From Niallia alba (GTDB lineage: Bacteria > Bacillota > Bacilli > Bacillales > Cytobacillaceae), in the NCBI RefSeq assembly GCF_012933555.1, contig NZ_JABBPK010000001.1, positions 3,512,001-3,576,000 of the forward strand: a DNA stretch of 64,000 nt, given 5' to 3'. Made by a program: the position numbers and the translations under genes. The notes beneath the pieces are model-generated. The model did no database searches. It saw only the letters and a list, made by a program, of their open reading frames with translations, and was not told the origin of the DNA. This document shows positions 9,435 to 64,000 of the stretch, one piece after another; within the stretch, counting starts at the first letter, position 1; each line of letters begins with the position of its first letter.

Positions 9435-9834
9435 GCAGACTGAATACACTTTGCTTTCCGCGGGGTCGCGCCAAGCCTCCTCATTATTTCATTGAGGACA
9501 CTGAAAAACTGGCTAACTAATGATGGTGGACAATCGTCATGTTTCAAACATAAGATAATGGATTTGTTTTCCGAGGCGTCCGCTCGCTTTCCATGGGGCG
9601 AGCGCCAAGCCTCCTCGTCACTACGTTCCTGCGGGGTTTCGGACTTTCTCGCAGCTCCCATAGGAGTCGAGCGGACGCCTCTCCAAACCAACCTTATTTT
9701 TACTTTCAAACATGCTTGGTCTTAATTTCGTTCGAAAAAAAGACTTTTTCAGTGGCCTCAGTGGTCTCATTTCATTCCTGCGGGGTCTCGTCTGTCTCGC
9801 TTTTCTCGCAGGAGTCTACATGTATTCAATCTGC
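9435..9834. repeat. MITE-like palindromic element, outer copy split by a second copy
   Basis: The left edge GCAGACTGAATACAC (from 9435) is mirrored by ATGTATTCAATCTGC (ending 9834). Family words TTTGCTTTCCGCGGGG, AAGCCTCCTC and, on the right, GGGGTCTCG, CTGTCTCGC and GCAGGAGTCTAC are present. The two halves are separated by the inner copy at 9552-9703. It lies between the IS4 element and valS. Confidence 0.75.
9552..9703. repeat. MITE-like palindromic element, inner (nested) copy
   Basis: The core is bounded by GAGGCGTCCGCTCG (9573) and its exact mirror CGAGCGGACGCCTC (ending 9681). It shares the words CTTTCCATGGGG, AAGCCTCCTCGTC, GCGGGGTTTCGGACT and CCCATAGGAGTC with the other copies. TTTCAAACAT occurs directly before (9542-9551) and after (9704-9713), which looks like a target duplication and shows that this copy inserted into the outer one. 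Confidence 0.7.
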
Positions 9835-9901
9835 TAGATAGTGTATTCTCTAATAAACTTTATCTAGTATCATTTTAAAAGTAAAGATTCCATCAACAGA
9901 A

Positions 9902-22281: not shown

Positions 22282-22437
22282 GACTGTTTTCGTATCGTTG
22301 GTGTTATTACCCGTAGCTTCGGTCTGCTATCGCTTGCAAGGTCTCAAGACTGTCTCGCTATTATCACAGAAGTATTCGCGTATTCCGGCTGCTCCATTTT
22401 TCCTATTGAAAAAACAACAGTCTTTTAGAAAACAGTC
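22282..22437. repeat. MITE-like element inside the heme operon, overlapping the hemD 3' end
   Basis: Ends GACTGTTTTC (from 22282) and GAAAACAGTC (to 22437) are exact mirrors. The flanks TTTGTTAC (22274-22281) and TTTGTTAA (22438-22445) agree at 7 of 8 positions, a probable target duplication. Internal family words include AAGACTGTCTCGCTA and GTATTCCGGCTGCTCC. The right end overlaps the last 13 bases of hemD, including its stop codon. Confidence 0.8.
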
Positions 22438-49948: not shown

Positions 49949-50114
49949 ATAATGTATTAATTATTTCAGAAATGTTTACCAAAAAATATTATATCATACC
50001 CTATAGGATATGCATAGTTTTTCTATTCCAACTAATAGACTATTTTATTATAATAATATAGGCAATTCATATAACCTGAAAAAATACTAAGTAATCATAA
50101 AAACAAATAAAATA

Positions 50115-50188
<74 letters not shown>

Positions 50189-50272
50189 ATGTTATGTATT
50201 TCTTTACTCTTTATGAGGACAATAGTTATTATATGATTATAGGGACATAAAGTCAATAGTTTATTGAAGTTT

Positions 50273-50314
50273 TTTTTCCTAATGAGGAATTTTTTTCTTC
50301 CTCATTAGGAAAAA
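50273..50314. repeat. 17-bp perfect hairpin downstream of ysnB
   Basis: TTTTTCCTAATGAGGAA and TTCCTCATTAGGAAAAA mirror each other over an 8-base loop, immediately past the ysnB stop. On the minus strand the tail is A-rich, not U-rich, so it is not a textbook intrinsic terminator for ysnB, although its position suggests a 3'-end role. Confidence 0.7.
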
Positions 50315-50319
50315 GCCTA

Positions 50320-50829
50320 CTAGAAGGGAAATTCACTTTTTAATTCTGGAAGTAACCCATTATGAAAATCATAAACTTCTGTTACAAATCGATTACTTTC
50401 AATGGTTAAAATGACATATGTTTGTTCTTTTCTACCTCTAGGCAATCGTAAACTACCCGGATTAATGAAAAGAACATCATCAACCACTTCCATCCCTAAG
50501 AAATGAGAATGCCCGAAACAGGCAATATTAGCCCCTATCTCCTTTGCTTTGTACAATAAATTATTAAGAGAGGATTTCACCCCATATAAATGCCCATGTG
50601 TTAAAAAAATCTTTTTTCCCGCAATTTCTTGAATTGTTTCCGTTGGATATCTGTCCTCATAATCACAGTTCCCTTGAACCGTAATATATCCCGCCATCAC
50701 TTCTTCACTTGCTGAAAGCTCTGAATCTCCACAATGCAGAAACAAATCTACATCCTCTTCATGCCTTTTTTTTAAAACACCTAACTCGGATACCAATCCA
50801 TGACTGTCACTTACAATCAAAATTTTCAT
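50320..50829 (-). CDS. ysnB: YfcE/MJ0936-type metallophosphoesterase YsnB
   Basis: A 169-residue calcineurin-like phosphoesterase. Metal ligands are in LIVSDSHG (D, H), LHCGDSE (GD), VQGNCD (GNxD/H-type), LTHGHLYG (GH) and CFGHSHF (GHxH). Length is normal for the family. Likely cotranscribed with rdgB, 6 bases apart. B. subtilis has the same ysnA-ysnB pair. Substrate unknown. Confidence 0.92.
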   Translation of the reverse strand: MKILIVSDSHGLVSELGVLKKRHEEDVDLFLHCGDSELSASEEVMAGYITVQGNCDYEDRYPTETIQEIAGKKIFLTHGHLYGVKSSLNNLLYKAKEIGANIACFGHSHFLGMEVVDDVLFINPGSLRLPRGRKEQTYVILTIESNRFVTEVYDFHNGLLPELKSEFPF

Positions 50830-50835
50830 CCAGGT

Positions 50836-51441
50836 CTAGTTCCTTTCCTTAAAAACAGTTGGTAACTGTTCTTTTAGTTTTTTTAATGCATTTGCACGGT
50901 GACTAATTTTATTTTTCTTCTCTGGCGGCAATTCAGCCATTGCCTTTTGTTCTACCTCTACATAAAAAATCGGATCATAACCAAAGCCGTAATCTCCTCT
51001 TCTTTCCGTTAAAATAATCCCTTCACAAGTACCGGTAAATGTTAAGGAGGATTCATTAGGAATTGCAACTGCTAATGTACAACAAAAGCGAGCTGTTCTT
51101 TTTTCTGTTGGAACTCCCTTTAATTCATCCAAAACCTTGTCCATATTATCTTGATCATTCTTTTGTTCACCTGCATAACGTGCAGAATACACTCCAGGTC
51201 TACCGTTCAATGCATCTATAACAAGACCAGAATCATCTGAGATAACAACACGATTTAGTAGCTTAGAAATCGTTTCTGCTTTTAGGAGAGCATTTTCTTC
51301 AAATGTTGTCCCTGTCTCCTCTACATCTGGTACATCTGGAAAATCTAATAGTGTTTTTACTTCATAGCCAAGTGGTGAAAACATTTGTACAAATTCTTTT
51401 GTCTTGCCTGTATTCTTTGTTGCAATAATAATCTCTTTCAT
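50836..51441 (-). CDS. rdgB: dITP/XTP (non-canonical purine NTP) pyrophosphatase
   Basis: About 201 residues (Ham1/RdgB family). It hydrolyses ITP, dITP and XTP to monophosphates, cleaning the nucleotide pool. Markers are [55 protein letters not shown] and [10 protein letters not shown]. Two ATGs in a row at the start (51444 and 51441). In B. subtilis (ysnA) it follows rph; here rph is missing and a palindromic composite lies upstream instead. Confidence 0.96.
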
Positions 51442-51700
51442 CATAAATCTCCTTAATTAGCTAAAAATATTTTTTTACGCTGAAACATATGTAGTTGCTA
51501 TTCTTTCTTTTAGTTTACTACGATTGAAAAAATGCGTCTAATAAAAGTATATACCCTTTCTTCCTTATTTCCAAAGACAGTTTTGTGAAGTTTATAACGT
51601 CATTTCATCGGTTTCTTCTGTTTTTATGGAAATCCTTATATAATTCACTATAAATATCGGTATGGATAAATTATTACCATCAACACTCTGGACTAAAAAA

Positions 51701-52086
51701 ATAAAGAGGCTGGGACATAAGTATTCCAGCCAAGGATAATTCCGAACAATTATACGAAGATGCTAATGAATGTTCCGTATAATTGTTCGGGCTTTTATTT
51801 GTTTTTCAAAGGATGTTTCCATGAAGTTTGGTGCGATTCCCCGCAGCCGGAATACACTTCGCTTTCCATGGGGCTCGCGCTGAGCCGCTTCGGCCTGTGG
51901 CCTGCAGGGTCTCAGACTGTCTCGCTAATCCCATAGGAGTCTTCGTGTATTCCGGCTGCTCTGTTTTTCCAACTAATTATATTTCCTCTTGTAAAAAGTA
52001 TGCGAAAGCAGCCGCTATTTACTAGCTATATTAGAAATTGTTCGTCTTTACAGAGTATCTATTTAGTTATGTCCCATCCTCTTTAT
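51701..52086. repeat. Composite palindromic element between gerM and rdgB
   Basis: Outer arms ATAAAGAGGCTGGGACATAA (from 51701) and TTATGTCCCATCCTCTTTAT (to 52086) pair with one mismatch over ~385 bases. Inside, CCGAACAATTATACG (about 51743) pairs with CGTATAATTGTTCGG (to about 51791), followed by a MITE-like element. AGAGGCTGGGACATAA-type ends are widespread dispersed repeats in Bacilli (from memory). Confidence 0.75.
51811..52013. repeat. MITE-like element (copy between gerM and rdgB)
   Basis: The core runs from GCAGCCGGAATACACTTCGC (about 51844) to its mirror GTGTATTCCGGCTGC (about 51960). The degenerate outer ends GGATGTTTCC (51811) and GCGAAAGCAGCC (52013) remain recognisable. No target duplication is visible. 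Internal words such as GGGTCTCAGACTGTCTCGC are shared with the other copies. Confidence 0.8.
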
Positions 52087-52097
52087 CAATTAACTTA

Positions 52098-53165
52098 TTA
52101 GAAACTACCTGTATTCACATTTTCCGGACGAGTAACTGGTTTAGTTAAACTTTCTCCTTCTGCATTCACTAAATCAGCTTCTCCATTAACAGTAACAGAA
52201 ACACTTTCAATGCCTTCTTGCTCTGTCAATGACAGTACTAATGAATTTAATACTTCATCGGCTAGTACTTTTTCTTCTCCGTTTAGCCCACTAGAATATA
52301 TGTTTTCGTTAAAGTTTAACGTAACTTTACCATCTTCTACTACTGGTTTATCTAACAGCTTCACATCGTTAGGTAATAAACTTGTTAATGCTGTTGCGCC
52401 TCCCATACCTGGGCCTTCTATTAATTCACCTACTGCGGCTGCCACATTATTTTCTTCTGCATTGCTAACACGCTTTGTTACTGGTACATAATAGTATGAA
52501 TCTAAATCTCCGCCAATATAATAAACGGTTAACGGTTTAGTGTTTGTAATATCTGTAACATCATCCGTATTAACGTTAATGCCATCTGCTCTTGTTAAAG
52601 CACCTTGGATCGGGGTTTTATTAACTGGCATTTCTGTCAGCTCATGACCATTTAAAGAGAGCTTAACAGCATCAATTGAATCAAATTGTGTCAATGTCCA
52701 CGTAATAGATTGTAAAATTTTCTCTTCATCTTTAGCCTCGTACTCTTTGAATTCATTTGAAAAATCGACTGTAGCCACTTTATCCTCATCTACATTAATA
52801 CTAATTTTCGTATCTTGCGGAATTACTGCCTGAAAATCATTTGGCAGCATTTCAGAAACTTTTCCACCTTTAACTAAATATTCTAAGCTTTCTTTTGCAA
52901 TCGAATTTGTTTTTGGCAGATTTAATGTTTGAGGAACGACATACCCATATTTATCCATTAAATATAATTCAATAGGCATTGCATCCTCTGTAGCAACTTC
53001 TCCCGCTGTTTCTTTGTCCGCATTTTCTTTCACTGCATCATCTTCATAGGATGTAGTTTGGGGTGGATCTACTTTTTCTTTATCTCCCAATAAGCTACAA
53101 CCAGAGATCAACACAGATGATATTAAAACCGCAGAAACTATGGTCAATTTGTTATTCTTAGACAT
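52098..53165 (-). CDS. gerM: Spore germination lipoprotein GerM
   Basis: A 355-residue protein with a signal peptide and lipobox (VLISGCSLL, Cys about residue 23), then two GerMN domains of ~110 residues each (first from MPIELYLMDKYGYVVPQTLN, second from PLTVYYIGGDLDSYYYVPVT). In B. subtilis GerM is needed for normal sporulation and germination and helps localise the SpoIIIA/IIQ channel. Acts outside the membrane. Next to racE, as expected. Confidence 0.93.
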   Translation of the reverse strand: MSKNNKLTIVSAVLISSVLISGCSLLGDKEKVDPPQTTSYEDDAVKENADKETAGEVATEDAMPIELYLMDKYGYVVPQTLNLPKTNSIAKESLEYLVKGGKVSEMLPNDFQAVIPQDTKISINVDEDKVATVDFSNEFKEYEAKDEEKILQSITWTLTQFDSIDAVKLSLNGHELTEMPVNKTPIQGALTRADGINVNTDDVTDITNTKPLTVYYIGGDLDSYYYVPVTKRVSNAEENNVAAAVGELIEGPGMGGATALTSLLPNDVKLLDKPVVEDGKVTLNFNENIYSSGLNGEEKVLADEVLNSLVLSLTEQEGIESVSVTVNGEADLVNAEGESLTKPVTRPENVNTGSF

Positions 53166-53253
53166 TCTTCATCACTCCTAAGACAGTTTGTACTAATATA
53201 TATACGAGCCTATCTTTTTTTTAGACCGTCTTTAGAAGATTTTTTTTCAAAAA

Positions 53254-53460
53254 GGCTGTTTTCGTAAAGTTTTTTGCGATTACCCGCAGCCGGAATTCAC
53301 TTCGCTTTCCGTGGGGCTCGCGCTGAGCCTCCTCACCTCGCCTCCGGGGTCTCAGACTGTCTCGCTAATCCCACAGGAGTCTACGTGTATTCCGGCTGCT
53401 CCATTTTTCCAACTAATTCTTTTTTTCGATAGAAAAACAACAATCCTTTAGAAAACAACC
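53254..53460. repeat. MITE-like element between gerM and racE (best-preserved core)
   Basis: Left end GGCTGTTTTCGTAAAG, right end CTTTAGAAAACAACC. The core runs from GCAGCCGGAATTCACTTCGC to its mirror GTGTATTCCGGCTGC. Internal blocks are GTGGGGCTCGCGCTGAGCCT, GGGTCTCAGACTGTCTCGCT and CCCACAGGAGTCTACG. The flanks TTCAAAAA and CACAAAAA agree at 6 of 8 positions. It lies upstream of gerM. Confidence 0.85.
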
Positions 53461-53463
53461 CAC

Positions 53464-53552
53464 AAAAAAGACTGTCTCACTATTTCATCCACAAAAATGT
53501 CTCGATTAGAACTGATCTAGATATTTTTGTTAATGGAACATAAGACAGTCTT
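53464..53552 (-). terminator. Terminator of racE
   Basis: A long hairpin: AAGACTGTCT (53469) pairs with AGACAGTCTT (ending 53552), with an inner ACAAAAAT / ATTTTTGT pairing. The A-run at 53464-53469 is the U-tract on the minus strand. Confidence 0.8.
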
Positions 53553-53557
53553 ATTAC

Positions 53558-54355
53558 TTATGACAATTTAATTGTTTCAACAGAATGTATTTCTTGATTT
53601 AGCCAGTTTGATGCTATTCTAGCAAAAATTTCTTTCGATCCAGTTGTATAAAAATGATGTTCTACTTGATTCTCTTCTGAAGCAAGTTGGTCATGATGGT
53701 TTAGAATGGTACTAACTTCTCTTGCCGTTTCTGCACCAGAACTAATCACTTTTACCTTTTCCCCTATCTCTTCTTGTATTACTTTTGCCAACAAAGGGTA
53801 ATGGGTACAACCAAGTATTAGAGTATCTATCTCTTTATTCTTTAATGGCCAAAGCGTTTCTTTCACAATTTTCCTTGCGACTGGTCCATCATATTCGCCG
53901 CTCTCCACTAAAGGAACAAATTTCGGGCATGCTAAACTAACTGTTCTTACTCGATTATTAATCTTTTTTAATGCTTTTTCATACGCTCGACTTCGAACAG
54001 TACCAATTGTTCCAATCATGCCTATATAATTATTTTTTGTTACCTTAATTGCTGTTCGTGCCCCCGGAATAATTACTCCAATTACAGGAATAGATAGCTG
54101 CCCGCGAATTTCCTCTAATGCCACTGCAGTAGCAGTATTACAGGCAATCACAAGCATTTTAATATTTTTCTTCAACAAGAATCTAGTCATTTCCCAAGTG
54201 AATTTCTTCACTTCTTCTCCCGTTCTTGGTCCATATGGACATCTTGCCGTATCCCCTAAGTATACGATATTTTCAAAAGGAAGCTGGCGCATAATCTCCT
54301 TCGCGACCGTTAATCCACCAACTCCAGAATCTATAACCCCTATTGCTCTTTCCAA
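53558..54355 (-). CDS. racE: Glutamate racemase
   Basis: A 265-residue enzyme that makes D-glutamate for peptidoglycan. The catalytic cysteines are in [12 protein letters not shown] (about residue 74) and [11 protein letters not shown] (about residue 185); the N-terminal motif is [15 protein letters not shown]. The start appears to be TTG at 54355, with GAGGCGG upstream, 10 bases after the ysmB stop. Likely an operon with ysmB (murI in other species). Confidence 0.95.
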
Positions 54356-54364
54356 AAAACCGCC

Positions 54365-54823
54365 TCATTTTTCTCGCATTACTTGATGTAAACGCATGAA
54401 ATTTTTCTTTAATTCCTCGATATCTCCGGTTGTATACTCATTTAATACTTCTTGAAGATAGTTTTGACGTTTTTTAATTACTTCGTCAATTAATCTTTTT
54501 CCTTCTTCTAGCATATGAATACGAACCACACGTCGATCATTCGGATCCTTCACTCTTTGAACTAAATGATTCTTTTCCATCCGATCAACTAAGTCGGTCG
54601 TTGTACTAAAGGCAAGGAACATTTTATTTGATAATTCCCCTATTGTCATATCGCCCTCTTCAAATAGCCATTGCAAGGCAACGAATTGAGGAGGAGTCAT
54701 TGTATAATCGCTTAATATCTCTCTCCCTTTTTGTTTAATGATCCCCGATATGTATCGCATATCCTTTTCTATCGTAGCTATATTCTCCAAATATTCCTTT
54801 GCATTTTTCTCTTCAGTCATCAT
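54365..54823 (-). CDS. ysmB: MarR-family transcriptional regulator YsmB
   Basis: About 152 residues with a winged-helix MarR fold. The recognition region reads MTIGELSNKMFLAFSTTTDL then VDRMEKNHLVQRVKDPNDRR, with helical dimerisation segments at both ends. I choose the ATG at 54823; GGGAG lies 9 bases upstream and overlaps the alternative ATG at 54838. Sits between racE and the gerE locus, as in B. subtilis. Ligand and targets unknown. Confidence 0.9.
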   Translation of the reverse strand: MMTEEKNAKEYLENIATIEKDMRYISGIIKQKGREILSDYTMTPPQFVALQWLFEEGDMTIGELSNKMFLAFSTTTDLVDRMEKNHLVQRVKDPNDRRVVRIHMLEEGKRLIDEVIKKRQNYLQEVLNEYTTGDIEELKKNFMRLHQVMREK

Positions 54824-54935
54824 GATTACAACTCCCATATATAAATATACAAATATAATTAATTTCCGACAATTTTCTACGAATCAGTACCTTTAATTAT
54901 AATCTACAATTCTTCCCTCGTAAATGTATAAGGCG

Positions 54936-55187
54936 AAAAGTTAATGGAGTATTAATTTAGATGTAAAATTTATGAACAAGAGCAGTTTTGACAATATTAT
55001 TTACACATCCCTCATTTAGCCATGTATCCTCATTAAAAGAAGATGACCCATATAAGCGGCAAAGGAGTGGAATTTCCTCCCCGCTTATACGAGATCATCT
55101 TCTTTATTATAGCTCTAGTTCTCCCATTCTAAGGAGTTCTACAACAGCCTGTGAACGCCCCTTCACGCCCAGCTTCTGCATAGCATT
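54936..55187. repeat. 252-bp direct repeat, left copy (gerE 3' end and downstream)
   Basis: By eye identical, base for base, to 59784-60035 (offset 4848). It contains the last 26 codons of gerE plus stop, the gerE terminator and about 100 bases downstream. The left copy is joined to the native ysmB-proximal DNA and so is probably the original position. Confidence 0.95.
55107..55187 (-). pseudogene. gerE 3' fragment
   Basis: It encodes SNAMQKLGVKGRSQAVVELL then RMGELEL and stop, in the same frame as intact gerE. Upstream the sequence changes at 55188 into DNA next to the recombinase gene. A 66-base hairpin terminator (55038-55103) follows. Reading: the downstream half of a gerE gene once split by the adjacent recombinase element. 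Confidence 0.85.
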
Positions 55188-55220
55188 TGAAATGCATACC
55201 TTTTGCATGCTAAAAACACA

Positions 55221-56714
55221 CTACTGTATTTGTTCAAAAGTGTATTTAATATCTAGTGTTCCATCTTGGCTAACTTCCATTGAATCTAATAACTGCTGGA
55301 AAGCATAATGTAAGTCACTTTCTTCATTTTCCAGCTGCTTAAAAGCCTGTTTAATGGTCTCTATATTAATACTTGTATTATCTTCTTGCGACAATAGAAA
55401 AAGCTTATCATTTAATTTACCAATCTGCTTTTCCAGTTCATCTCTTTTCACTTTAAATTCCGCTTTAGATATCAGTCGATCATTTAAATAAAGATCCAGA
55501 ACATCTTTTTTCTGTTCTTCTAACCGGTCTATTTTATTTCTAATGCCGCGGGCTGTCCTCCAGCTGCTTCTTTTTATATTCTGTATCAAAGTTTAACCGA
55601 ATGCTTTCTCCCTTTTCTGTTAAAAGTCTTAACATAAACTCCCTAAATTGTTCGTAACGAATCGGTTCATGATTTAAGCAGCCATGTTCACCATATCTTC
55701 TGTACTTGCTGCATTTTAAGTATTTCCATTCAATTCTGGAACCATCTTTTTTTCGTTTATAACTTTGCATAATCACCATATTAGAGCCACAATGAGCGCA
55801 TTTTAATATATCTCTGAATTCATTCCATGGAGTAATTTTTGTTTTTTTACTTTTATAGTCTCTGTTATTAGCTTTTTCAAATTGAGTAGAAGTTATGATT
55901 GCTGGATGATGATCTTTAAAGATCAACCATTTTTCTTGAGGATTACGGATTTGCTTCTTTCTTCCACCAACTTTTACAGTTGTGTACTGATTAAGTATGA
56001 AGTTTCCATGATAGATAGGATTTTGAAGTATTCTCTGAACGGATGTAACCTGCCATTTATCCTTTTGTTTCGGTTTTAAGCCTAAATCATTTAACTCTTT
56101 TGTAATGCGCTTAAAACCCATTTATCGAAGTTATACCAATGGAATATTTGTCTTACTACTTTAGCTTCTTCTTCATTGATAACAAGTTTTTGGTTTGGAC
56201 GATCATATCCAAAAGGAATCTTACCGATATGTTCGCCACGTCGCACTTTAGCTGCAAGAGCAGCAGAAATCGAGCTTGATAGAGTTCTAGAGTATTGAGC
56301 AGCAAACAAGCTCCATAATTCAAAAACCATGTCGTTCTTACCAACTTTAAAACTGTCAAAACCTTCTTCAATGGATATTACACGAACATTATGTGCTAGC
56401 AGTGTTTCTCTAATTTCTAAGCTATCTTTTAGATCCCTGGCTAAACGTGAAATGGATTTAAAGATAATCATTTCTATTTCGCCTTTTTTCGTTTTATCTA
56501 ATAATAATTGGATTGCTGGGCGATCTAAGAAGACTGTTCCAGATATTCCTTCGTCTTTAAAAACAGATTCTTCGTTCCATTCGTAGCCATTTCTTTCTAG
56601 CCAGTTACGGCATATATCGATTTGGTTTTCGACCGATGAGACTTGTTCGTCTCGGTCGGTGGATACACGGACGTAGACTGCGTATTTAGATTTGGGTTGC
56701 ATAAGTTGTACCAT
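55221..56714 (-). pseudogene. Large serine recombinase, disrupted by two frameshifts
   Basis: Together about 500 residues of a site-specific recombinase. The resolvase domain (56091-56714) has the catalytic serine in YVRVSTDRDEQVSSVENQ and FKSISRLARDLKDSLEIRE. The Recombinase domain (55540-56121: GFKRITKELNDLGLKP, NPIYHGNFI) has a zinc ribbon (LKCAHCGSNM… CSKYRRYGEHGCLN). The C-terminal coiled coil lies at 55221-55589. Frame 1 is lost near 56121 (GATAAATGGG, consistent with one missing A) and frame 2 near 55550-55560. It lies 33 bases from the gerE fragment, as an integrase next to its attachment site would. Confidence 0.88.
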
Positions 56715-56732
56715 CCTTTATTGAATATAAAA

Positions 56733-57041
56733 TTATTCATCAACTGCACCATTAGAATATAAATCTTTCTCTACTTGTACCCATTTGATTAAATCCTTTC
56801 TTTCTGGGTAAGATTCTTCGTATTTTTTATTATTATTTAGTAATTCATGTCCTTTATTTGTTAACCGTGCTGGCTTAATTGAAAAATAATCGTCCAACCT
56901 TAATACTCTTTCTAAATATCCTTCATTTTCTAAAAATTTTATAAAATTCTCAAATTCTCTGGTTCTTAAACCATAATCTTTTTCTGTAGGTAAAAATTCC
57001 CCTCTATTTATCTCTCTTAAAATACTATAACCAACTCTCAT
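56733..57041 (-). CDS. YjcQ-family winged-helix protein
   Basis: A 102-residue protein. YSILREINRGEFLPTEKDYG, then FENFIKFLENEGYLERVLRL and ARLTNKGHELLNNN match the YjcQ pattern (B. subtilis YjcQ and phage/ICE relatives), a small winged-helix domain. It ends 18 bases before the recombinase start, so the two form one minus-strand unit, consistent with a mobile element. GGAGG lies upstream. Possibly a regulator of excision; inference only. Confidence 0.7.
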   Translation of the reverse strand: MRVGYSILREINRGEFLPTEKDYGLRTREFENFIKFLENEGYLERVLRLDDYFSIKPARLTNKGHELLNNNKKYEESYPERKDLIKWVQVEKDLYSNGAVDE

Positions 57042-57132
57042 AATATTCCTCCTAACTAGAAATCACTTAATTCACTATATTTTATCATTAATTGTAAATT
57101 TATAGAAATATCATTTACTAATCTACTAATTT

Positions 57133-57176
57133 AATGTTAATATTATCTAGAGAGCTCTCTGTATAATATTAACATT
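57133..57176. repeat. 44-bp near-perfect palindrome between divergent element genes
   Basis: Arms AATGTTAATATTAT (57133-57146) and ATAATATTAACATT (57163-57176) match exactly. The centre AGAGAGCTCTCT is itself a perfect 12-bp palindrome; only two base pairs in between fail. GTATAAT lies in the right arm, 14-20 bases before a ribosome binding site. It sits midway between the YjcQ-like gene (minus) and a secreted protein gene (plus). Confidence 0.9.
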
Positions 57177-57189
57177 AATGGAGGTTATT

Positions 57190-57594
57190 ATGAATAAAAA
57201 AATTCAGCAAATCTTTTTAGTAATAATATCTACAATTTTATTATGTTTTAGTTTACTTCCAATCAATACTTTTGCAGAAGAAAAGTCCCTCATCCAAGAA
57301 AACATATCTGTAAATACTACTCAATTGCAAATTAAAATTGCATCAATCGATGAAGAAACCTCGAAATTGATTATTGGGGAAGAAATCACAAGCCTATCAC
57401 TAAACGGATATCTAGATAATTTAATTAAGTATAGTAATGACTCCAATGCTTCTTACACTTTAGAAGAAGTTGAGGATAACGATCTTATTAATTTATCAAA
57501 TTATGATTCAACTTTTAAACCCAATTATGTAGTTACTTTAAGTTACTCAAATGATGTCCATCGCCATAAACATCAAATCATCAATAATAACTAA
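57190..57594 (+). pseudogene. Secreted small protein, 3' end cut by the IS21-family junction
   Basis: It starts at the ATG at 57190 with GGAGG just upstream. Residues 1-30 are a Sec signal peptide (FLVIISTILLCFSLLPINTF then AEE). The mature part is acidic (SIDEETSKLIIGEEI; TLEEVEDNDLINLSNYDS) with no domain I recognise. Native coding ends at about 57555; the last 12-13 codons (IHRHKH-like) are read from antisense istB, so the true C-terminus is missing. It may be a cargo gene of the gerE element. Confidence 0.6.
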
Positions 57595-58083
57595 GTCAGC
57601 GTCTCTTATTCTTTTCATTCTTGTCTGTGATTTACGTGTGATTTCCTCCGTTTTCAATACATTGATAAGGTCTCCCATCGTAGTAAAGATCACCTTGTAA
57701 CCTTGGTTTAACGCTTCGATACCTAACCCGATTGAAATGTGGGTTTTCCCGCAACCTGGTGGCCCCAATAGAATGATATTGTGTAATTGTTCTATCCAGG
57801 TTAAATCTTTTAATCTATTTAGCTGTTTGTTGCTTAATGACTTCTGTTCTTTTAAATTGAATTCTTCTAATGTCTTCTGGAAAGGAAATGTAGCCCATTT
57901 AAATCGTTTCTCTAATTGCTTTTCTTCTCTTCGAGTTTGTTCATATTTTGCTACATCGAAGAGGAACTGAGTAAAGGACGAATCCTTTTGCTCAGCCTCT
58001 CTTATTAATGCAGGAAGGTGATTTGCTGTTTCTGTTAAACGTAATGTCTTCATCAAATCTTGTAATTGATTTAGCTGACTCAT
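57556..58083 (-). pseudogene. istB, C-terminally truncated
   Basis: It matches the intact IstB at 3105-3869 from MSQLNQLQDLMKTLRLTETA through Walker A GPPGCGKTHIS to DLVIIDDLMFMAMD, then diverges into unrelated sequence (two codons, then stop). About 75 C-terminal residues are lost, including sensor-2 elements. It overlaps istA by 4 bases. Confidence 0.88.
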
Positions 58084-59648
58084 ACAGGTTCACCTTCCAA
58101 TATGGCAGTGTAGGCATCCACTTCTCTTTTTTGAGCCTCCGTCTCCATAATCCAACCAGAAACTCCTTTTATGTGTGTTACATTCTCAGCGGTATCATGC
58201 ACCGTATCTCCAACTTGTCGGTGTCGTTTTAAATAGGCAACGACATCGCTAAAATCTGTCGCACCATAAAGGCTCCTTTTTATACATTCATTTAATGCTG
58301 CCGATAGAATTTCCCTGTTATTTACTTTTGTCTCTTTTAATATCATTTGGAGCTGATCCCTAATATATCGAGGGTATTTATCTTTTACTGTCTGTAAATA
58401 ATCATAAGCTATCTCACTGTCATTAAATTGTTGGGCAACGGTATCCATAAATGCATCAATACCTTTTGTTCTATCTCGGCTATGTTTTCTGTCTTTAATT
58501 AATAATCCCTTCCCGTCAGGGATAGTATGTTTTGCGATGATTTCTCCTGTTTCATGGCTATAAATGATTAATTCCTTTTCTTCGGTTTTCTTAATGCAGA
58601 CAGTTTCATATTTGCCAAACGTCCCCAATGGAAGAGAATAACGATTCGATAAATAACGAATAGTATTGTCCTTATGGACGCATCTTGATATACTAGTTTC
58701 ATAGTTATATTTTACATCTAGATTTTTGGTGACTGGTCGTAAGTGTTGTCTTTCCAGGGAAAACACTTCGACCGGTCTCTTTTTTGTTGTATGATGAACT
58801 TTATAGTTGCCGGTTCTATTAAGCCATTCCCATCCTTGTTCATTCCAGGAATCAATGTTATGAAAGACTCGGTGTTTAGCGAAGTTATGTTTAATGAAAC
58901 CAACTACATTTTCAATTTTTCCTTTACTTTCTGGATCCGACTTACGGCAAACACGAAGGGTTAGATTCCTAGATTCTTTATATTGTTGGAACTCTTGCGT
59001 TAGAATTAAATCTCCTCCATTTTCACTTACCACAATTAAACTATCTTGGTCATATACTAATTCTCCTGGTATCCCTCCGTACCACCTAAATGCATTCTCA
59101 TGTGCTGCAATCACATCTTGGGTAGTAAAAGGCCTATCTAACCACTCCTTATACTTATACCTAGAATTGGATAATACAAAGGCAATAAAGTTAAGTTTAA
59201 CTTCTTTATTATCACTAGTTTTTTGCTTAGTATGACCAAAGTCAACTTGAATTTGCTCACCCATTGGTGTATCTGGTATAGCTTCATAGATTCGTGGTGA
59301 AGTTTCCTTTTTTATTTTATATTCGTCTCGAAGCTCTTTAACATAGGAGCGAACCGTACTTTCACCTACTTTAAAATCTTCATACTTCTCTTTTAACCAG
59401 TCTTCTACTTGTGCAGCTGACATATCTGGATGTTCTCTCAGCCAGGATAAAATTAGTTCTTTATAAGGATCTAATTTCTTACTTCTCGACTGAAGAGAGT
59501 CTACCCACTCAGACATATCCGAAGGATTCTTTTTTAGATAACGATGAACGGTTGATCTTGAGATTCCTAGTTTTTCTGCTACCTTTTTCTTGCTAAAACC
59601 CTTTTTTATTAGCTGATGTATTTCCATATACATTTCCCACTTATCCAC
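58080..59648 (-). CDS. istA: IS21-family transposase IstA
   Basis: A 522-residue transposase. N-terminal HTH (IHQLIKKGFSKKKVAEKLGI then SRSTVHRYLKK). DDE core with first Asp in EQIQVDFGHTKQ, second Asp in LVYDQDSLIVV and Glu in KGKIENVVGFIKHNF. The C-terminal IS21 domain contains RYLSNRYSLPLGTFGKYE. Apparently intact, but IstB is truncated, so autonomous movement is doubtful. Confidence 0.92.
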   Translation of the reverse strand: MDKWEMYMEIHQLIKKGFSKKKVAEKLGISRSTVHRYLKKNPSDMSEWVDSLQSRSKKLDPYKELILSWLREHPDMSAAQVEDWLKEKYEDFKVGESTVRSYVKELRDEYKIKKETSPRIYEAIPDTPMGEQIQVDFGHTKQKTSDNKEVKLNFIAFVLSNSRYKYKEWLDRPFTTQDVIAAHENAFRWYGGIPGELVYDQDSLIVVSENGGDLILTQEFQQYKESRNLTLRVCRKSDPESKGKIENVVGFIKHNFAKHRVFHNIDSWNEQGWEWLNRTGNYKVHHTTKKRPVEVFSLERQHLRPVTKNLDVKYNYETSISRCVHKDNTIRYLSNRYSLPLGTFGKYETVCIKKTEEKELIIYSHETGEIIAKHTIPDGKGLLIKDRKHSRDRTKGIDAFMDTVAQQFNDSEIAYDYLQTVKDKYPRYIRDQLQMILKETKVNNREILSAALNECIKRSLYGATDFSDVVAYLKRHRQVGDTVHDTAENVTHIKGVSGWIMETEAQKREVDAYTAILEGEPV

Positions 59649-59783
59649 CTTTTGCTACCTCCACTGATGAGTATGTTTTGATATAAACATTTTACAATGG
59701 ATGGTACTTATATTTGTATATTTGGGTAAATAAGTGTTTCTTTTTATCTAGCAAAAACTGTCTACTCTAGTTTAGCAGTCACA

Positions 59784-60035
59784 AAAAGTTAATGGAGTAT
59801 TAATTTAGATGTAAAATTTATGAACAAGAGCAGTTTTGACAATATTATTTACACATCCCTCATTTAGCCATGTATCCTCATTAAAAGAAGATGACCCATA
59901 TAAGCGGCAAAGGAGTGGAATTTCCTCCCCGCTTATACGAGATCATCTTCTTTATTATAGCTCTAGTTCTCCCATTCTAAGGAGTTCTACAACAGCCTGT
60001 GAACGCCCCTTCACGCCCAGCTTCTGCATAGCATT
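59784..60035. repeat. 252-bp direct repeat, right copy (inside the intact gerE locus)
   Basis: Second copy of 54936-55187. The perfect match ends at 60035/60036, within gerE codon 48/49; the left copy then runs into recombinase-proximal DNA and this copy continues as intact gerE. The other end coincides with the IS21-family terminus at 59783. Confidence 0.95.
59886..59951 (-). terminator. Terminator of gerE
   Basis: A long stem: AGAAGATGA with ATAAGCGG (left) pairs with CCGCTTAT and TCATCTTCT (right). The minus-strand tail is TTTTAATG. It lies 3 bases past the gerE stop and is duplicated at 55038-55103. Confidence 0.85.
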
Positions 60036-60179
60036 AGAAATATGATTTCGAACTGTTTTTTCGCTTATGAATAAATCACTCGCGATTTCCTTAGTCGTTT
60101 TATCTTGGACTAACAGTTCAAATACTTCTCTTTCTCTTTTGGTTAATAATGGCTTGTGAGTAAATTCATTCTCCTTCAA
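59955..60179 (-). CDS. gerE: Sporulation regulator GerE (LuxR/NarL-type HTH)
   Basis: A 74-residue protein, the same length as B. subtilis GerE, consisting only of a LuxR-type HTH: LLTKREREVFELLVQDKTTK then EIASDLFISEKTVRNHIS and AMQKLGVKGRSQAVVELLRM. In the mother cell it controls late coat genes after SigK. The start is a TTG at 60179 with GGAGGG 9 bases upstream; the frame is open further upstream but lacks homology. A SigK-like promoter lies at 60244-60271. The gene is intact here although a broken 3' copy remains at 55107. Confidence 0.95.
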   Translation of the reverse strand: MKENEFTHKPLLTKREREVFELLVQDKTTKEIASDLFISEKTVRNHISNAMQKLGVKGRSQAVVELLRMGELEL

Positions 60180-60243
60180 GTAGTGTAACCCTCCTTGCCT
60201 TTGCCAGCTATGAACTTTGGGATGGGTATAGTTATAGTCTGAA

Positions 60244-60271
60244 TATATTATGTAAGATGACACCTTGGAGT
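60244..60271 (-). promoter_or_regulatory. SigK-type promoter of gerE
   Basis: On the minus strand AC (60270-60271), 17 bases, then CATAATATA (60244-60252), fitting the mother-cell SigK pattern AC-N16/17-CATANNNTA. It lies about 60 bases before the gerE start. gerE is SigK-dependent in B. subtilis. Confidence 0.65.
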
Positions 60272-60461
60272 GACTGGATTTATAGAAATTAGGGAAGGTT
60301 TTTTCTGTTTTTAAAATTTCTTTCCATTACAATCATTTAACAAAACAATTAAGCATTTATTAACCTTCCCCATTAACAGATAGTGTACATTTGATATTTA
60401 GATGGTCGAGTGAAAAATCCACTATATTCTCCCTCCTTTTTCCTAACTTCTTAAAAATCCA
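60272..60461. other. Intergenic region between gerE and the QueC-like gene
   Basis: AT-rich, no gene seen. In B. subtilis a thioesterase gene (ysmA) lies between gerE and sdhB; no trace of it is visible here. Confidence 0.35.
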
Positions 60462-60470
60462 TGTTATAAT
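60462..60470 (+). promoter_or_regulatory. Extended -10 promoter of the QueC-like gene
   Basis: TGTTATAAT at 60462-60470 is a perfect extended -10 box, 65 bases before the ATG. No good -35 lies 17 bases upstream. Confidence 0.5.
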
Positions 60471-60534
60471 TTAAGCAACGAGTAATTATGCAGTAGTTTA
60501 ATTTCTGTTATCAAAGGAAGTTTTGGTGATATAA

Positions 60535-61683
60535 ATGGACTTAAACATAGATTTTCTAACAAACCTACATAAAGAATTACTTCAGGATATGTACTTTGAT
60601 TATGATCGGATAGGCACTCCCTATATTGATATCGTAACGATTATGGGTGGGCTATTTTACTTTGAACAACAAACGAAAAAGGCAAGAAAGAATAACTGCT
60701 TAATCATTCCCGTTTTCCATGTAAGTCACTGGGAAAAAAATAGGGATGTCTTAGAAATGCTTCTTGATTGGTTAATGGAAGAACCTGTTTATCTTCAGTT
60801 CCAACAAATTGATGTGGAATTAATGTCTCCTTCTTTTTATCTTCCTAATAATTATGAAGTAACATTATTTTTCGATGATATGGAATCATTAGTCGGTGTT
60901 GCGAAAAATAATTGCTCAGCTTCACCTATTGCCTCTGATTATCTTCGACTTATAAACAAAGAGAATGAGCGGGGTAAGCAAGAAAAATTAGCTGTTTTTC
61001 TAAGAAGTAACGTCTCTGCTTCTGGTGAGATTATTGCATTAGATTCAACAATCTATAAGAAGATCTCTAAAAAATTATCAACCGTTAGCACTTGTTTACT
61101 CGTATCGATTGCTGCAGTGAAAACGTACTTTAACGGTGGAAGCACTGTATATGTCTATCAAAATAGCAAAATCAATAGAAATGTTTGTATCGATTGGAAT
61201 GTATTGCACAAATCTACTCATCCGAAAACTTTTAAACTATTAAATGATCTCTATACAAGCTTGGATCTTAATTTAACTATCAAAACTCCTGTATTGCATA
61301 AACCTTTACAAATAGGCATAAACGAAATACCAAAAGAATATAAACTACAAATCAAAAATACTATTGACTGTGTGCGAATAAAAAGAAAAGGAAAAGCAGC
61401 TGTTACCTTACCATGTGGAATTTGTTTGCCATGCTTGCAAAGAAAAATCACTTTATCTGCAAGTAATAATGAAGTATATGATACATTGTATGAGTATGAT
61501 TATGGTCAAAAGGTTGCAAATCTGGAAAAAGAGGAAGATAAACGAATCTTAACAGAGACTTTGCAGCATCTAGAAGCTACTATAATTTATTTAGAGAATA
61601 ACTTAAGCGAACTGGCTAGCGAGGAAAAATCAGTAGCAACTGAATTTATTTTCGCCTATCGTCAATTCAAAGAAAAATATTAG
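60535..61683 (+). CDS. QueC/QatC-like protein with a degenerate PP-loop
   Basis: A 382-residue protein. The C-terminal half follows the QueC/QatC pattern: STVSTCLLVSIAAVKTYFNG then STVYVYQN (182-210), HKSTHP (225-230), and a zinc site of Cys279 plus CGICLPCLQR (294-303). In QueC relatives an ATP-binding SGGxDS loop opens the N-terminal core; here the aligned segment is VTLFFDDMESLVG (109-121), without the Ser-Gly-Gly-Asp-Ser residues. A 110-residue N-terminal extension (IMGGLFYFEQQTKKARKNN, IIPVFHVSHW) resembles the N-terminus of QatC-type proteins. Possibly a pseudoenzyme or partner subunit. It stands alone between gerE and sdhB, with GGTGAT before the ATG. Function unknown. Confidence 0.6.
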   Translation: MDLNIDFLTNLHKELLQDMYFDYDRIGTPYIDIVTIMGGLFYFEQQTKKARKNNCLIIPVFHVSHWEKNRDVLEMLLDWLMEEPVYLQFQQIDVELMSPSFYLPNNYEVTLFFDDMESLVGVAKNNCSASPIASDYLRLINKENERGKQEKLAVFLRSNVSASGEIIALDSTIYKKISKKLSTVSTCLLVSIAAVKTYFNGGSTVYVYQNSKINRNVCIDWNVLHKSTHPKTFKLLNDLYTSLDLNLTIKTPVLHKPLQIGINEIPKEYKLQIKNTIDCVRIKRKGKAAVTLPCGICLPCLQRKITLSASNNEVYDTLYEYDYGQKVANLEKEEDKRILTETLQHLEATIIYLENNLSELASEEKSVATEFIFAYRQFKEKY

Positions 61684-61684
61684 C

Positions 61685-61716
61685 CGAAAAAAGACCACCA
61701 AATGGCGGTCTTTTTT
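61685..61716. terminator. Bidirectional terminator between the QueC-like gene and sdhB
   Basis: AAAAAAGACCACC and GGCGGTCTTTTTT form a stem with one mismatch and a 4-base loop, with A- and T-runs on the two sides. It serves the convergent genes ending at 61683 and 61719. Confidence 0.9.
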
Positions 61717-61718
61717 GA

Positions 61719-62477
61719 TTAATGATCACTTCCAAAGAAGTTTTTAAATGCTTGGAACGTTGTTTCACGGTTCAAGGCAGCAATAGATGTTGTCAATGGA
61801 ATTCCTTTTGGACAAGACTGCACACAGTTTTGAGAGTTACCACAGTTAGCTAGTCCACCATCTCCCATTATCTCTTGTAGTCTTTCCTCTTTATTCATTT
61901 CACCTGTTGGATGAGAATTGAATAGACGAACTTGAGAAAGCGGTGCTGGTCCCATGAAATTAGATTTACTGTTTACATTTGGACATGCTTCTAAGCAAAC
62001 TCCACATGTCATACATTTAGATAACTCGTATGCCCATTGGCGTTTTTTCTCTGGCATTCTTGGACCAGGCCCTAAATCATACGTTCCATCGATTGGAATC
62101 CATGCTTTGACTTTCTTTAAGCTATCAAACATGCGGCTTCGATCTACTTGGAGATCGCGGACAACAGGGAATGTTCTCATTGGTTCCAAACGAATCGGTT
62201 GTTCTAATTGATCAATTAGAGCTGTACAGGATTGTCTAGGCTTTCCATTTATGACCATTGAACATGCCCCACATACTTCTTCTAAACAGTTCATATCCCA
62301 AGAAACTGGAGATGTTTTTTCTCCCTTGGTTGTTACAGGATTTCTGCGAATTTCCATTAGGGCAGAAATCACATTCATATTAGGTCGATATGGCAAAGTG
62401 AATTCTTCTACATAAGATGGTGAATTAGGGTCATCTTGTCTTGCAATTTGAAAAGTAACTGTTTTTTGTTCCCCCAT
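61719..62477 (-). CDS. sdhB: Succinate dehydrogenase iron-sulfur subunit
   Basis: A 252-residue subunit of complex II. The 2Fe-2S cysteines are in CLEEVCGACSMVINGKPRQS then C; the 4Fe-4S cluster is CMTCGVCLEACPN; the 3Fe-4S cluster is CGNSQNCVQSCPKG. It passes electrons from SdhA FAD to membrane menaquinone. The ATG lies 1 base after the sdhA stop, so the two are translationally linked. Confidence 0.98.
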   Translation of the reverse strand: MGEQKTVTFQIARQDDPNSPSYVEEFTLPYRPNMNVISALMEIRRNPVTTKGEKTSPVSWDMNCLEEVCGACSMVINGKPRQSCTALIDQLEQPIRLEPMRTFPVVRDLQVDRSRMFDSLKKVKAWIPIDGTYDLGPGPRMPEKKRQWAYELSKCMTCGVCLEACPNVNSKSNFMGPAPLSQVRLFNSHPTGEMNKEERLQEIMGDGGLANCGNSQNCVQSCPKGIPLTTSIAALNRETTFQAFKNFFGSDH

Positions 62478-62478
62478 T

Positions 62479-64000
62479 TTATTTCACTCCCTCTTTTTGC
62501 TTTGAATAATCTCTTTTTCTAGGTTTGATTAATGAAGTATCGACTTCTTGATAATGGAGATCAGGAGCCTTATCTTCCCCAACAAATTTAGCCATTGTTG
62601 TTTTTAAGAAATCCTCGTCATTTCTTTCTGGGAATTCTGGTTTATAGTGCGCTCCACGGCTTTCGTTTCGATTGTATGCACCGAGTGTGATAACACGTGC
62701 AAGATGAAGCATATTCTGTAATTGACGAGTGAATACTGCCCCTTGGTTAGACCATTTTGCTGTATCATTAATATTAATATGTTTATATCGCTCTAACAGC
62801 TCTTGAATTTTATCGTCTGTTGCTAATAATTTATCGTTGTAACGAACAACTGTAACATTATCGGTCATCCATTCTCCTAATTCCTTATGTAGAACATAAG
62901 CATTTTCTGTTCCATCCATTTTCATAATATCCTGCCATTTAGATTCTTCTTCTTTAATAGCGGAATCATATAAGGAAGTAGATAAATCTTCTGCACTTTT
63001 GCTTAATCCACTTATATATTTAACTGCATTCGGGCCTACAACCATTCCACCATAAATCGCTGAAAGTAAGCTGTTTGCTCCTAAACGGTTTGCTCCATGC
63101 TGAGAGTAATCACATTCTCCTGCTGCAAATAGACCTGGAATATTGGTCATTTGATCATAATCCACCCATAATCCCCCCATTGAGTAATGAACTGCAGGGA
63201 AAATTTTCATCGGAAGTTTACGTGGATCTTCGCCAGTGAATTTTTCGTATATCTCAATAATGCCACCTAATTTAATATCTAATTCTTTAGGATTTTTATG
63301 AGATAAGTCTAGATACACCATATTTTCCCCATTGATGCCGAGCTTTTGGTCAACACAAACATGGAAAATCTCACGTGTCGCAATATCCCTAGGCACAAGG
63401 TTTCCGTAGGCTGGATATTTCTCTTCTAAGAAATACCACGGCTTCCCATCTTTATATGTCCAGATACGTCCGCCTTCCCCACGAGCTGATTCACTCATTA
63501 AACGCAGTTTATCGTCACCAGGAATAGCAGTTGGATGAATTTGGATAAATTCCCCATTAGCATAATAGGCTCCCTGTTGATACACAACAGATGCTGCTGA
63601 ACCAGTGTTTATAATAGAGTTCGTAGATTTTCCGAAGATAATTCCAGGGCCTCCAGTTGCCATGATAACAGCATCTGCAGGGAAGGATTTAATCTCCATT
63701 GTTTTTAAGTCCTGTGCTTTAATCCCTCTACATACACCTTCTTCATCTGTGATAATACCAAGGAATTCCCAGCCTTCATACTTAACTACAAGCCCATCAA
63801 CTTCATATCTTCTAACTTGTTCATCTAAAGCATATAGAAGCTGTTGTCCTGTCGTTGCCCCAGCAAAAGCTGTTCGATGATACTGTGTTCCTCCAAAACG
63901 GCGGAAATCAAGTAACCCTTCTGGTGTACGGTTAAACATTACACCCATTCTATCCATCAAATGAATAATTCCAGGGGCTGCTTCAGCCATCGCCTTGACA
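62479..64000 (-). CDS. sdhA: Succinate dehydrogenase flavoprotein subunit (N-terminus outside window)
   Basis: The C-terminal ~507 residues of SdhA; the frame is open to base 64000 (VKAMAEAAPGIIHLMDRMGV), and about 80 N-terminal residues with the FAD dinucleotide motif and histidyl-FAD lie outside. Active-site segments seen are FIQIHPTAIPGDDKLRLMSE, SARGEGGRIW, VHYSMGGLWVDYDQMTNIPG and GANRLGANSLLSAIYGG. It oxidises succinate to fumarate on the cytoplasmic face. Upstream of sdhB, as usual; sdhC would be beyond the window. Confidence 0.98.
   Translation of the reverse strand, partial: VKAMAEAAPGIIHLMDRMGVMFNRTPEGLLDFRRFGGTQYHRTAFAGATTGQQLLYALDEQVRRYEVDGLVVKYEGWEFLGIITDEEGVCRGIKAQDLKTMEIKSFPADAVIMATGGPGIIFGKSTNSIINTGSAASVVYQQGAYYANGEFIQIHPTAIPGDDKLRLMSESARGEGGRIWTYKDGKPWYFLEEKYPAYGNLVPRDIATREIFHVCVDQKLGINGENMVYLDLSHKNPKELDIKLGGIIEIYEKFTGEDPRKLPMKIFPAVHYSMGGLWVDYDQMTNIPGLFAAGECDYSQHGANRLGANSLLSAIYGGMVVGPNAVKYISGLSKSAEDLSTSLYDSAIKEEESKWQDIMKMDGTENAYVLHKELGEWMTDNVTVVRYNDKLLATDDKIQELLERYKHININDTAKWSNQGAVFTRQLQNMLHLARVITLGAYNRNESRGAHYKPEFPERNDEDFLKTTMAKFVGEDKAPDLHYQEVDTSLIKPRKRDYSKQKEGVK

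What the first reader, a model, noticed from the sequence alone, without database searches (positions are those of the whole stretch)
54936..60179. Fossil of a gene-intervening element in gerE, now repaired
A gerE 3' fragment (55107-55187) is directly joined to a frameshifted large serine recombinase, a YjcQ-like gene and a cargo-like secreted protein, while a complete gerE lies at the far side. Large serine recombinases that split sporulation genes and excise in the mother cell are known (skin in sigK, SPbeta in spsM; as I recall, a non-prophage element in gerE of a Bacillus cereus strain). This window looks like such a gerE element caught after decay.
Basis: partly seen in the sequence, partly recalled or inferred. 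Interest (0 to 1): 0.72.

Follow-up and report, generated by a model that had tools for sequence, protein, structure and literature searches.

The report
Dead gerE-splitting element beside intact gerE
This is the broken half of a mobile element that inserts itself into the spore regulator gene gerE, stranded next to a complete gerE, so it seems to record a bacterium that no longer needs the element's recombinase to make its GerE protein.

Summary
Confirmed. Window 54936-55187 repeats, base for base, 252 bp of the complete gerE locus at 59784-60035. The fragment is fused at codons Ile47-Ser48-Asn49, the insertion point of the known B. cereus gin element, to a serine recombinase broken by two frame changes. 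That recombinase belongs to a clade found in gerE: of 16 genomes carrying it, the window's included, 14 have it within 3 kb of a gerE half; in the other two the contig ends. A junction consensus from ten other elements hits one place in the 64-kb window, this junction. The element's far end (second attachment site, separate gerE 5' half, and a small conserved protein seen in nine related elements) is missing; a truncated IS21 copy joins the remnant to an intact gerE. Shown: remnant, attachment junction, recombinase clade, complete gerE. Inferred: recombination with an element-free copy of the locus gave back gerE; import of half an element beside a never-split gerE remains possible. A dead member of a known kind; a remnant beside whole gerE was not found in print.

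The parts
54936..55187 (-). Repeat copy A: gerE codons 49-74, terminator and downstream spacer; flank towards marR is the ancestral arrangement
   Evidence: 252/252 identical to 59784-60035; same gerE-spacer-marR order in G001, G002, G010
55107..55187 (-). gerE 3' fragment
55185..55209 (-). Attachment junction, element arm plus gerE core
   Evidence: 20 of 25 to a consensus of ten other elements; only site of 18 or more on both strands of the window; alignment
55221..56714 (-). Large serine recombinase pseudogene in three ORF pieces (56091-56714, 55540-56121, 55221-55589)
   Evidence: Pfam; relatives; trees
56733..57041 (-).
   Evidence: weak Pfam; 56-63% relatives in G001, G002, G192 beside the same partner
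57178..57555 (+). 5' part of an accessory secreted-protein gene, cut at the IS junction (ORF runs on to 57594 in IS sequence)
57556..59783 (-). IS21-family copy lacking its istB end: istB part to 58083, istA 58080-59648, left end at 59783
59784..60035 (-). Repeat copy B, end of the complete gerE with terminator and spacer
59955..60179 (-). Complete gerE, 74 aa
59883..59953 (-). Hairpin behind gerE, present in both copies (54936-55187 has the same sequence)
   Evidence: MFE -41.6 kcal/mol, z -7.7 against shuffles

Best explanation
54936-57555 is the stranded end of a gerE-intervening element. Its large serine recombinase recombined the element's attP with gerE at Asn49, which left a gerE 3' half beside the recombinase gene and a 5' half at the far end. 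Two lesions made excision impossible: two frame changes broke the recombinase, and the far part (second attachment site, separate gerE 5' half and, judging by relatives, a 41-50-aa candidate directionality factor) was replaced by a truncated IS21 copy joined to an intact gerE with its own upstream region and terminator. Most likely the replacement was recombination with an element-free chromosome of the same species (an excised sister or transformed DNA) that had IS21 downstream of gerE, and it gave the host a permanently intact gerE. Shown: remnant, attachment junction, recombinase clade, complete gerE, missing far part. Inferred: order of events, donor, and that GerE is made normally.
For: Repeat 252/252 identical against at most 95.7% over 164 bp in other species, so the second gerE came from the same species, recently. 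Left flank is the ancestral gerE-marR order. Junction at codons 47-49 with an element-type arm found once in the window. Recombinase within 3 kb of a gerE half in 14 of 16 genomes, two being contig ends. Outside recombinases: six of the nine others of the own genome with PF07508 fall outside the clade. One complete gerE and one 3' fragment, no other 5' half in the genome. IS left end at the repeat boundary, other end lost. Small conserved protein in nine related elements, not in the window.
Against: One genome only: neither a split gerE nor an IS21-bearing element-free sister of this species was seen. The first frame change lies among short runs of one base, so a base-calling error there is not excluded. 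Donor and order of events are not shown. The small protein was not found in the 20.5 kb held of the Shimazuella locus either, and most other clade loci were held only with 1.5-kb flanks. Excision was not tested for this clade. In the N-piece tree the place inside the clade is unresolved and the program warned of long branches among the controls.
Confidence: 0.62

Rival explanations
1. Import, not repair: gerE was never split in this lineage. A piece of DNA from an element-bearing cell (spacer, gerE 3' half, recombinase, accessory genes) entered an intact locus that already had IS21 downstream of gerE, by homology at the marR side and an illegitimate join inside istB.
For: Needs the same number of events and predicts the same final structure: IS end at the repeat boundary and a non-homologous join of the accessory gene to istB.
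Against: Nothing here speaks against it. It gives no reason for the loss of the recombinase, though none is needed once gerE is whole.
Confidence: 0.28
2. The element is built to carry its own gerE 3' end, so that insertion leaves gerE whole, as some elements do with the genes they enter.
For: The final structure (full gene at one end, displaced 3' end at the other) looks like that.
Against: Relatives with the same recombinase have truly split gerE: both halves on one contig and strand in 10 of the 16 clade genomes. The extra 3' end carries 170 bp of the species' own spacer and is separated from the recombinase part by a cut IS21. The free attP of the B. altitudinis record has no gerE 3' end.
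Confidence: 0.04
3. Assembly or base-calling artefact: the repeat or the frame changes are errors, for instance from a culture with excised and integrated states.
For: The first frame change lies among short runs of one base; in G403 contigs end at the attachment site, so such mixtures can disturb assemblies.
Against: The join runs through an IS21 copy whose other relatives in the genome are only 71-74% identical, and through a cut istB and a cut accessory gene, which a repeat mis-join would not make.
Confidence: 0.06

Closest known systems
gin, the gerE-intervening element of Bacillus cereus ATCC10987 (PMC5595907; section 4 part 1, sections 8 and 11 read, other passages by search)
   Same: Serine recombinase element in gerE at the same codons 47-49 (nt 138-146); crossover predicted at a diadenine; a recJ gene in the element, as next to the clade's recombinase in G045 (DHH, DHHA1 and RecJ_OB domains) and G133 (DHH).
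   Different: gin is 28.6 kb with three recombinases and a working girC/girX pair, and gerE is split in vegetative cells. Here half an element with a broken recombinase lies beside a whole gerE. Orthology to GirC not tested.
Split-gerE elements with unbroken recombinases of the same clade, found here (for example G037, G045, G133, G201, G246, G424)
   Same: Same clade, same junction codons, recombinase beside the gerE 3' half.
   Different: Recombinase in one frame, gerE in two halves; those six also have the small conserved protein.
SPbeta in spsM and skin in sigK of B. subtilis (recalled; PMC4191935 seen in search listings only)
   Same: Recombinase element that splits a sporulation gene and is excised during sporulation.
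   Different: Other target genes, functional elements, no spare whole gene.
Chromosomal curing of prophages by transformation (PMC12637031, outline and abstract seen)
   Same: Loss of an integrated element through recombination with element-free DNA.
   Different: Shown in pneumococci as deletion of prophages; here half the element stayed behind.

Membership tests
gerE-intervening element (gin-like) | Insertion at gerE codons 47-49 by site-specific recombination | tested here: met
   Junction alignment, attP of a relative, single consensus match in the window
gerE-intervening element (gin-like) | Recombinase of a lineage that sits in gerE | tested here: met
   14 of 16 genomes within 3 kb of a gerE half, two contig ends; trees
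gerE-intervening element (gin-like) | gerE split into two halves at the two ends of the element | tested here: not met
   3' fragment present, but the only 5' half belongs to a complete gerE; hence filed as a remnant
gerE-intervening element (gin-like) | Unbroken recombinase and a directionality factor | tested here: not met
   Two frame changes; the clade's small protein has no relative in the window. What serves as the factor in this clade is itself not proven
gerE-intervening element (gin-like) | Excision during sporulation | not testable with these tools
   needs the living organism
GirC orthologue | Closer to GirC than to other serine recombinases | not testable with these tools
   GirC's sequence was not in the collections that could still be searched
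Large serine recombinase | Resolvase, Recombinase and zinc-ribbon domains in this order | tested here: met
   over two of the three pieces; same order in the unbroken relative
IS21-family insertion sequence | istA and istB between two terminal ends | tested here: inconclusive
   istA (rve, Mu-type C-terminal domain) and istB (PF01695) present; one end at 59783, istB and the other end cut off

The most novel reading that the evidence does not exclude
The window records a natural escape from dependence on a gene-splitting element: after the recombinase died with gerE locked in two, the host recaptured a whole gerE from an element-free copy of its own chromosome and left the element stranded. Beyond the window, gerE is a convergent hotspot, entered at one codon triplet by two distant recombinase lineages (31-36% identical over the N piece), the present one with its own 41-50-aa directionality factor.
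Probability: 0.45. Interest if true: 0.65.

Novelty: new member of a known kind. Interest (0 to 1): 0.5.

Why it matters
Elements that split sporulation genes are usually described as working partners of the host, kept because their recombinase is needed to rebuild the gene. A dead half-element beside a whole gerE shows that a host can leave that dependence, and shows an intermediate state. The comparison also turns gerE from one worked case (gin, plus one prophage that its paper mentions) into a recurrent target: of 193 genomes of the family, 11 have a gerE 5' half that ends near residue 50, 9 of them with a 3' half found, and two recombinase lineages use the same codons. Natural elements of 4.1 to 5.3 kb (G246, G201, G424) would be handy for finding the smallest set of genes that excision needs.

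Tried and rejected
Species: the genome's second contig (8,049 bp) gave one weak plasmid match and no name. Rfam on 50000-62500 gave only a tRNA. The one scan of genome contigs, with the N piece, gave one relative, Shimazuella; it works from short exact peptides and reaches close relatives only. Protein searches with the G045 recombinase gave 17 phage records (15 listed) and 1 plasmid record at E<=1e-40; the CBP1 phage record ends with the recombinase gene, so its attachment site could not be read. The accessory secreted protein has no family above cut-off and is not special to gerE elements: with the winged-helix gene it lies apart from gerE in G001, G002 and G192. G248 (complete gerE on one contig, recombinase and gerE 3' half on another) looked like a second case of the window's state; I do not count it as one, because the two contigs have different gerE neighbours, its assembly is listed at 6% contamination, and the recombinase contig's marR resembles that of another family. 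It is still counted among the 14 of 16. G403 has contig ends at the attachment site and in gerE and is counted as uninformative. In one search, 17 of 397 genomes had no gerE match at E<=1e-18 and were not followed; genus g111 scores low throughout, and of its eight low rows one (G351) was checked and has a full-length divergent gerE. For the trees I used 6 of the 9 other PF07508 places of the own genome (three short or overlapping ones dropped) and left out two cut-off clade members (L080, L097). A target-site duplication of the IS could not be tested, one end being lost. Rejected: chance repeat; own-3'-end design; artefact (see rivals).
Full report
What is there. The window holds a perfect 252-bp direct repeat, 54936-55187 and 59784-60035, 4848 bp apart. 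Copy B is the end of a complete gerE (59955-60179, minus strand, 74 aa) with a strong hairpin behind it and a spacer. Copy A has the same gerE codons 49-74, hairpin and spacer, but is fused at codon 49 to other DNA. Beyond copy A lie marR and murI (names by eye); this is the ancestral order, since G001, G002 and G010 of the same genus have intact gerE followed by the same spacer sequence and marR. Beyond copy B lies the end of an IS21-family copy, at 59783/59784. Of 13 genomes of the genus, the own one included, 12 have a complete gerE and in G004 the contig ends inside it.

The junction. In the gerE frame the break lies in Ile47-Ser48-Asn49. The first difference between the two copies is 55188, the third base of Ser48; the five bases after it still agree and then the copies part. 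That fits a crossover at the AA of Asn49, copy A carrying the element's base in Ser48. The gin element of B. cereus ATCC10987 sits at nt 138-146 of gerE, the same codons, and its authors predict cleavage at a diadenine (PMC5595907: section 4 part 1, sections 8 and 11 read, other passages by search). A consensus of the arms of ten other elements of the recombinase clade, slid along both strands of the window, reached 18 of 25 or more at one place, this junction, with 20. A circular B. altitudinis record with phage genes shows the matching free site, an inverted repeat about the same core.

The recombinase. Three ORF pieces carry, in order, Resolvase, then Recombinase and zinc-ribbon domains, then a part without a Pfam hit. 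Two frame changes part them; in the relative L068 the same stretches are one ORF of 488 aa. Searched piece by piece, the nearest relatives in the split-gerE loci lie beside gerE 3' halves in G045 (81.0% for the N piece, 62.7% for the middle piece), G133 (80.5%, 61.8%) and G037 (66.8%, 59.7%). With the G045 protein as query at E<=1e-90, 5 of 193 genomes of the family and 13 of 397 of an order sample have a match, 16 different genomes. In 13 of them a gerE half lies in the 1.5-kb flank, 11 times the 3' half (window and the doubtful G248 included) and twice the 5' half; in G454 the 3' half is 2.8 kb away; in G079 and G403 the contig ends in the recombinase or 55 bp behind it. Beyond this set, Shimazuella kribbensis has a gerE 3' half preceded by a C-terminal relic of the same recombinase, and an IMG/VR contig has the recombinase beside a gerE 3' half. 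In trees of 29 rows the N piece and the middle piece each fall in a 17-row clade (100/99 and 99/99) that leaves out six other recombinases of the own genome and the second lineage below; the middle piece groups with G045, G133 and G572 (95/94), while the N piece is unresolved inside the clade, and the program warned of long branches among the controls.

A second lineage on the same site. Six other split gerE loci (G031, G036, G065, G100, G108, G131) carry a recombinase only 31-36% identical to the window's N piece, also beside the 3' half and at the same codons. In the family, of 193 genomes, 11 have a 5' half that ends at residue 50-58; for 9 a 3' half was found, for 5 of these on the same contig and strand. 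G028, G166 and G189 show no gerE and G078 a divergent, nearly full-length one. Of 15 handles picked from the order sample, 12 have both halves on one contig and strand, 4.1 to 51.6 kb apart; G248, G403 and G351 do not. Ten of the 16 clade genomes have both halves on one contig (G037; G201, G246, G367, G424, G425, G451, G454, G486, G572).

What was lost. The small elements of G201 (4.7 kb) and G246 (4.1 kb) have a 48- and a 41-aa ORF before the recombinase. Relatives of it are found in G037, G045, G133, G424, G454, the B. altitudinis record (inside a gene annotated as a hypothetical protein) and an IMG/VR contig, so in nine elements, with E-values from 2e-9 to 5e-4 outside the two queries; it has no Pfam family. 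It was not found in the 20.5 kb held of the Shimazuella locus, and several clade loci were held with 1.5-kb flanks only, so it cannot be called general. In G045 and G133 it lies just inside the gerE 5' half. The gin directionality factor GirX is a 42-aa protein, so this is a candidate for the same role; the sequences could not be compared. The window has no relative of it. The second attachment site and a separate gerE 5' half are gone too: the genome has one complete gerE, one 3' fragment and otherwise LuxR-type relatives at 33-52% identity.

What replaced it. The accessory gene at 57178 is cut at about residue 126 and joined to istB, itself cut at residue 176 of about 254. This gene and its winged-helix neighbour are a pair also seen apart from gerE in G001, G002 and G192. 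The IS21 copy's relatives in the genome are at 71-74%, so a mis-join through an identical IS is unlikely.

How it probably came about. A chromosome with the element in gerE and one without it recombined within the species, since the two repeat copies are identical while other species differ by 4% or more over the longer alignments. Either the element-bearing chromosome received IS21, spacer and gerE from an element-free one (repair), or an IS21-bearing intact chromosome received half an element (import). I favour repair, because a dead recombinase in a split gerE would withhold GerE and favour any cell that regained it; this is inference. Recombination between the two repeat copies would restore the ancestral locus and remove what lies between, so the state is probably young (inference).

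Place among known things. It worked like gin; as a member it fails two tested features (gerE split, unbroken recombinase), so it is filed as a dead remnant of that kind. Searches of the held papers (open-licence full texts only) gave gin, with its mention of a prophage in gerE of B. glycinifermentans, and no remnant beside a whole gerE.

Noticed in passing
L132:2448-2594, L133:2249-2374, L065:1427-1537, L067:7884-7988, L062:4351-4473, L134:4052-4162, L141:5714-5833, L085:2594-2707, L112:4404-4535: A conserved small protein (41-50 aa) in nine elements of this recombinase clade, near the recombinase or the gerE 5' half in several; candidate recombination directionality factor.
   Followed up: partly
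L055, L057, L058, L059, L064, L070: A second, distant recombinase lineage lies beside gerE 3' halves at the same codons, so two lineages converge on one short target.
   Followed up: partly
L132, L133, L134: Very small split-gerE elements (4.1 to 5.3 kb) with a recombinase, the small protein and few other genes.
   Followed up: partly
L010:18496-18826: Shimazuella kribbensis has a gerE 3' half preceded by a C-terminal relic of the recombinase, with an unbroken copy about 7 kb away.
   Followed up: partly
L139 end, L137 start, L138 start (G403): Three contigs end at the attachment site or in gerE, as might be if excised and integrated states were both in the culture.
   Followed up: no
L066:1044-1760 and L068:1140-1862: A Sel1-repeat gene (PF08238) lies between the recombinase and the gerE 3' half in G133 and G045, in place of nothing in the window.
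   Followed up: partly
window:53261-53440 and 51824-51984 (parts at 22340-22403 and 9777-9835): A G+C-rich intergenic repeat, 87% identical between the two long copies, also once elsewhere in the genome (L006, 82%); the two long copies lie in the stretch where Rfam found only a tRNA.
   Followed up: partly
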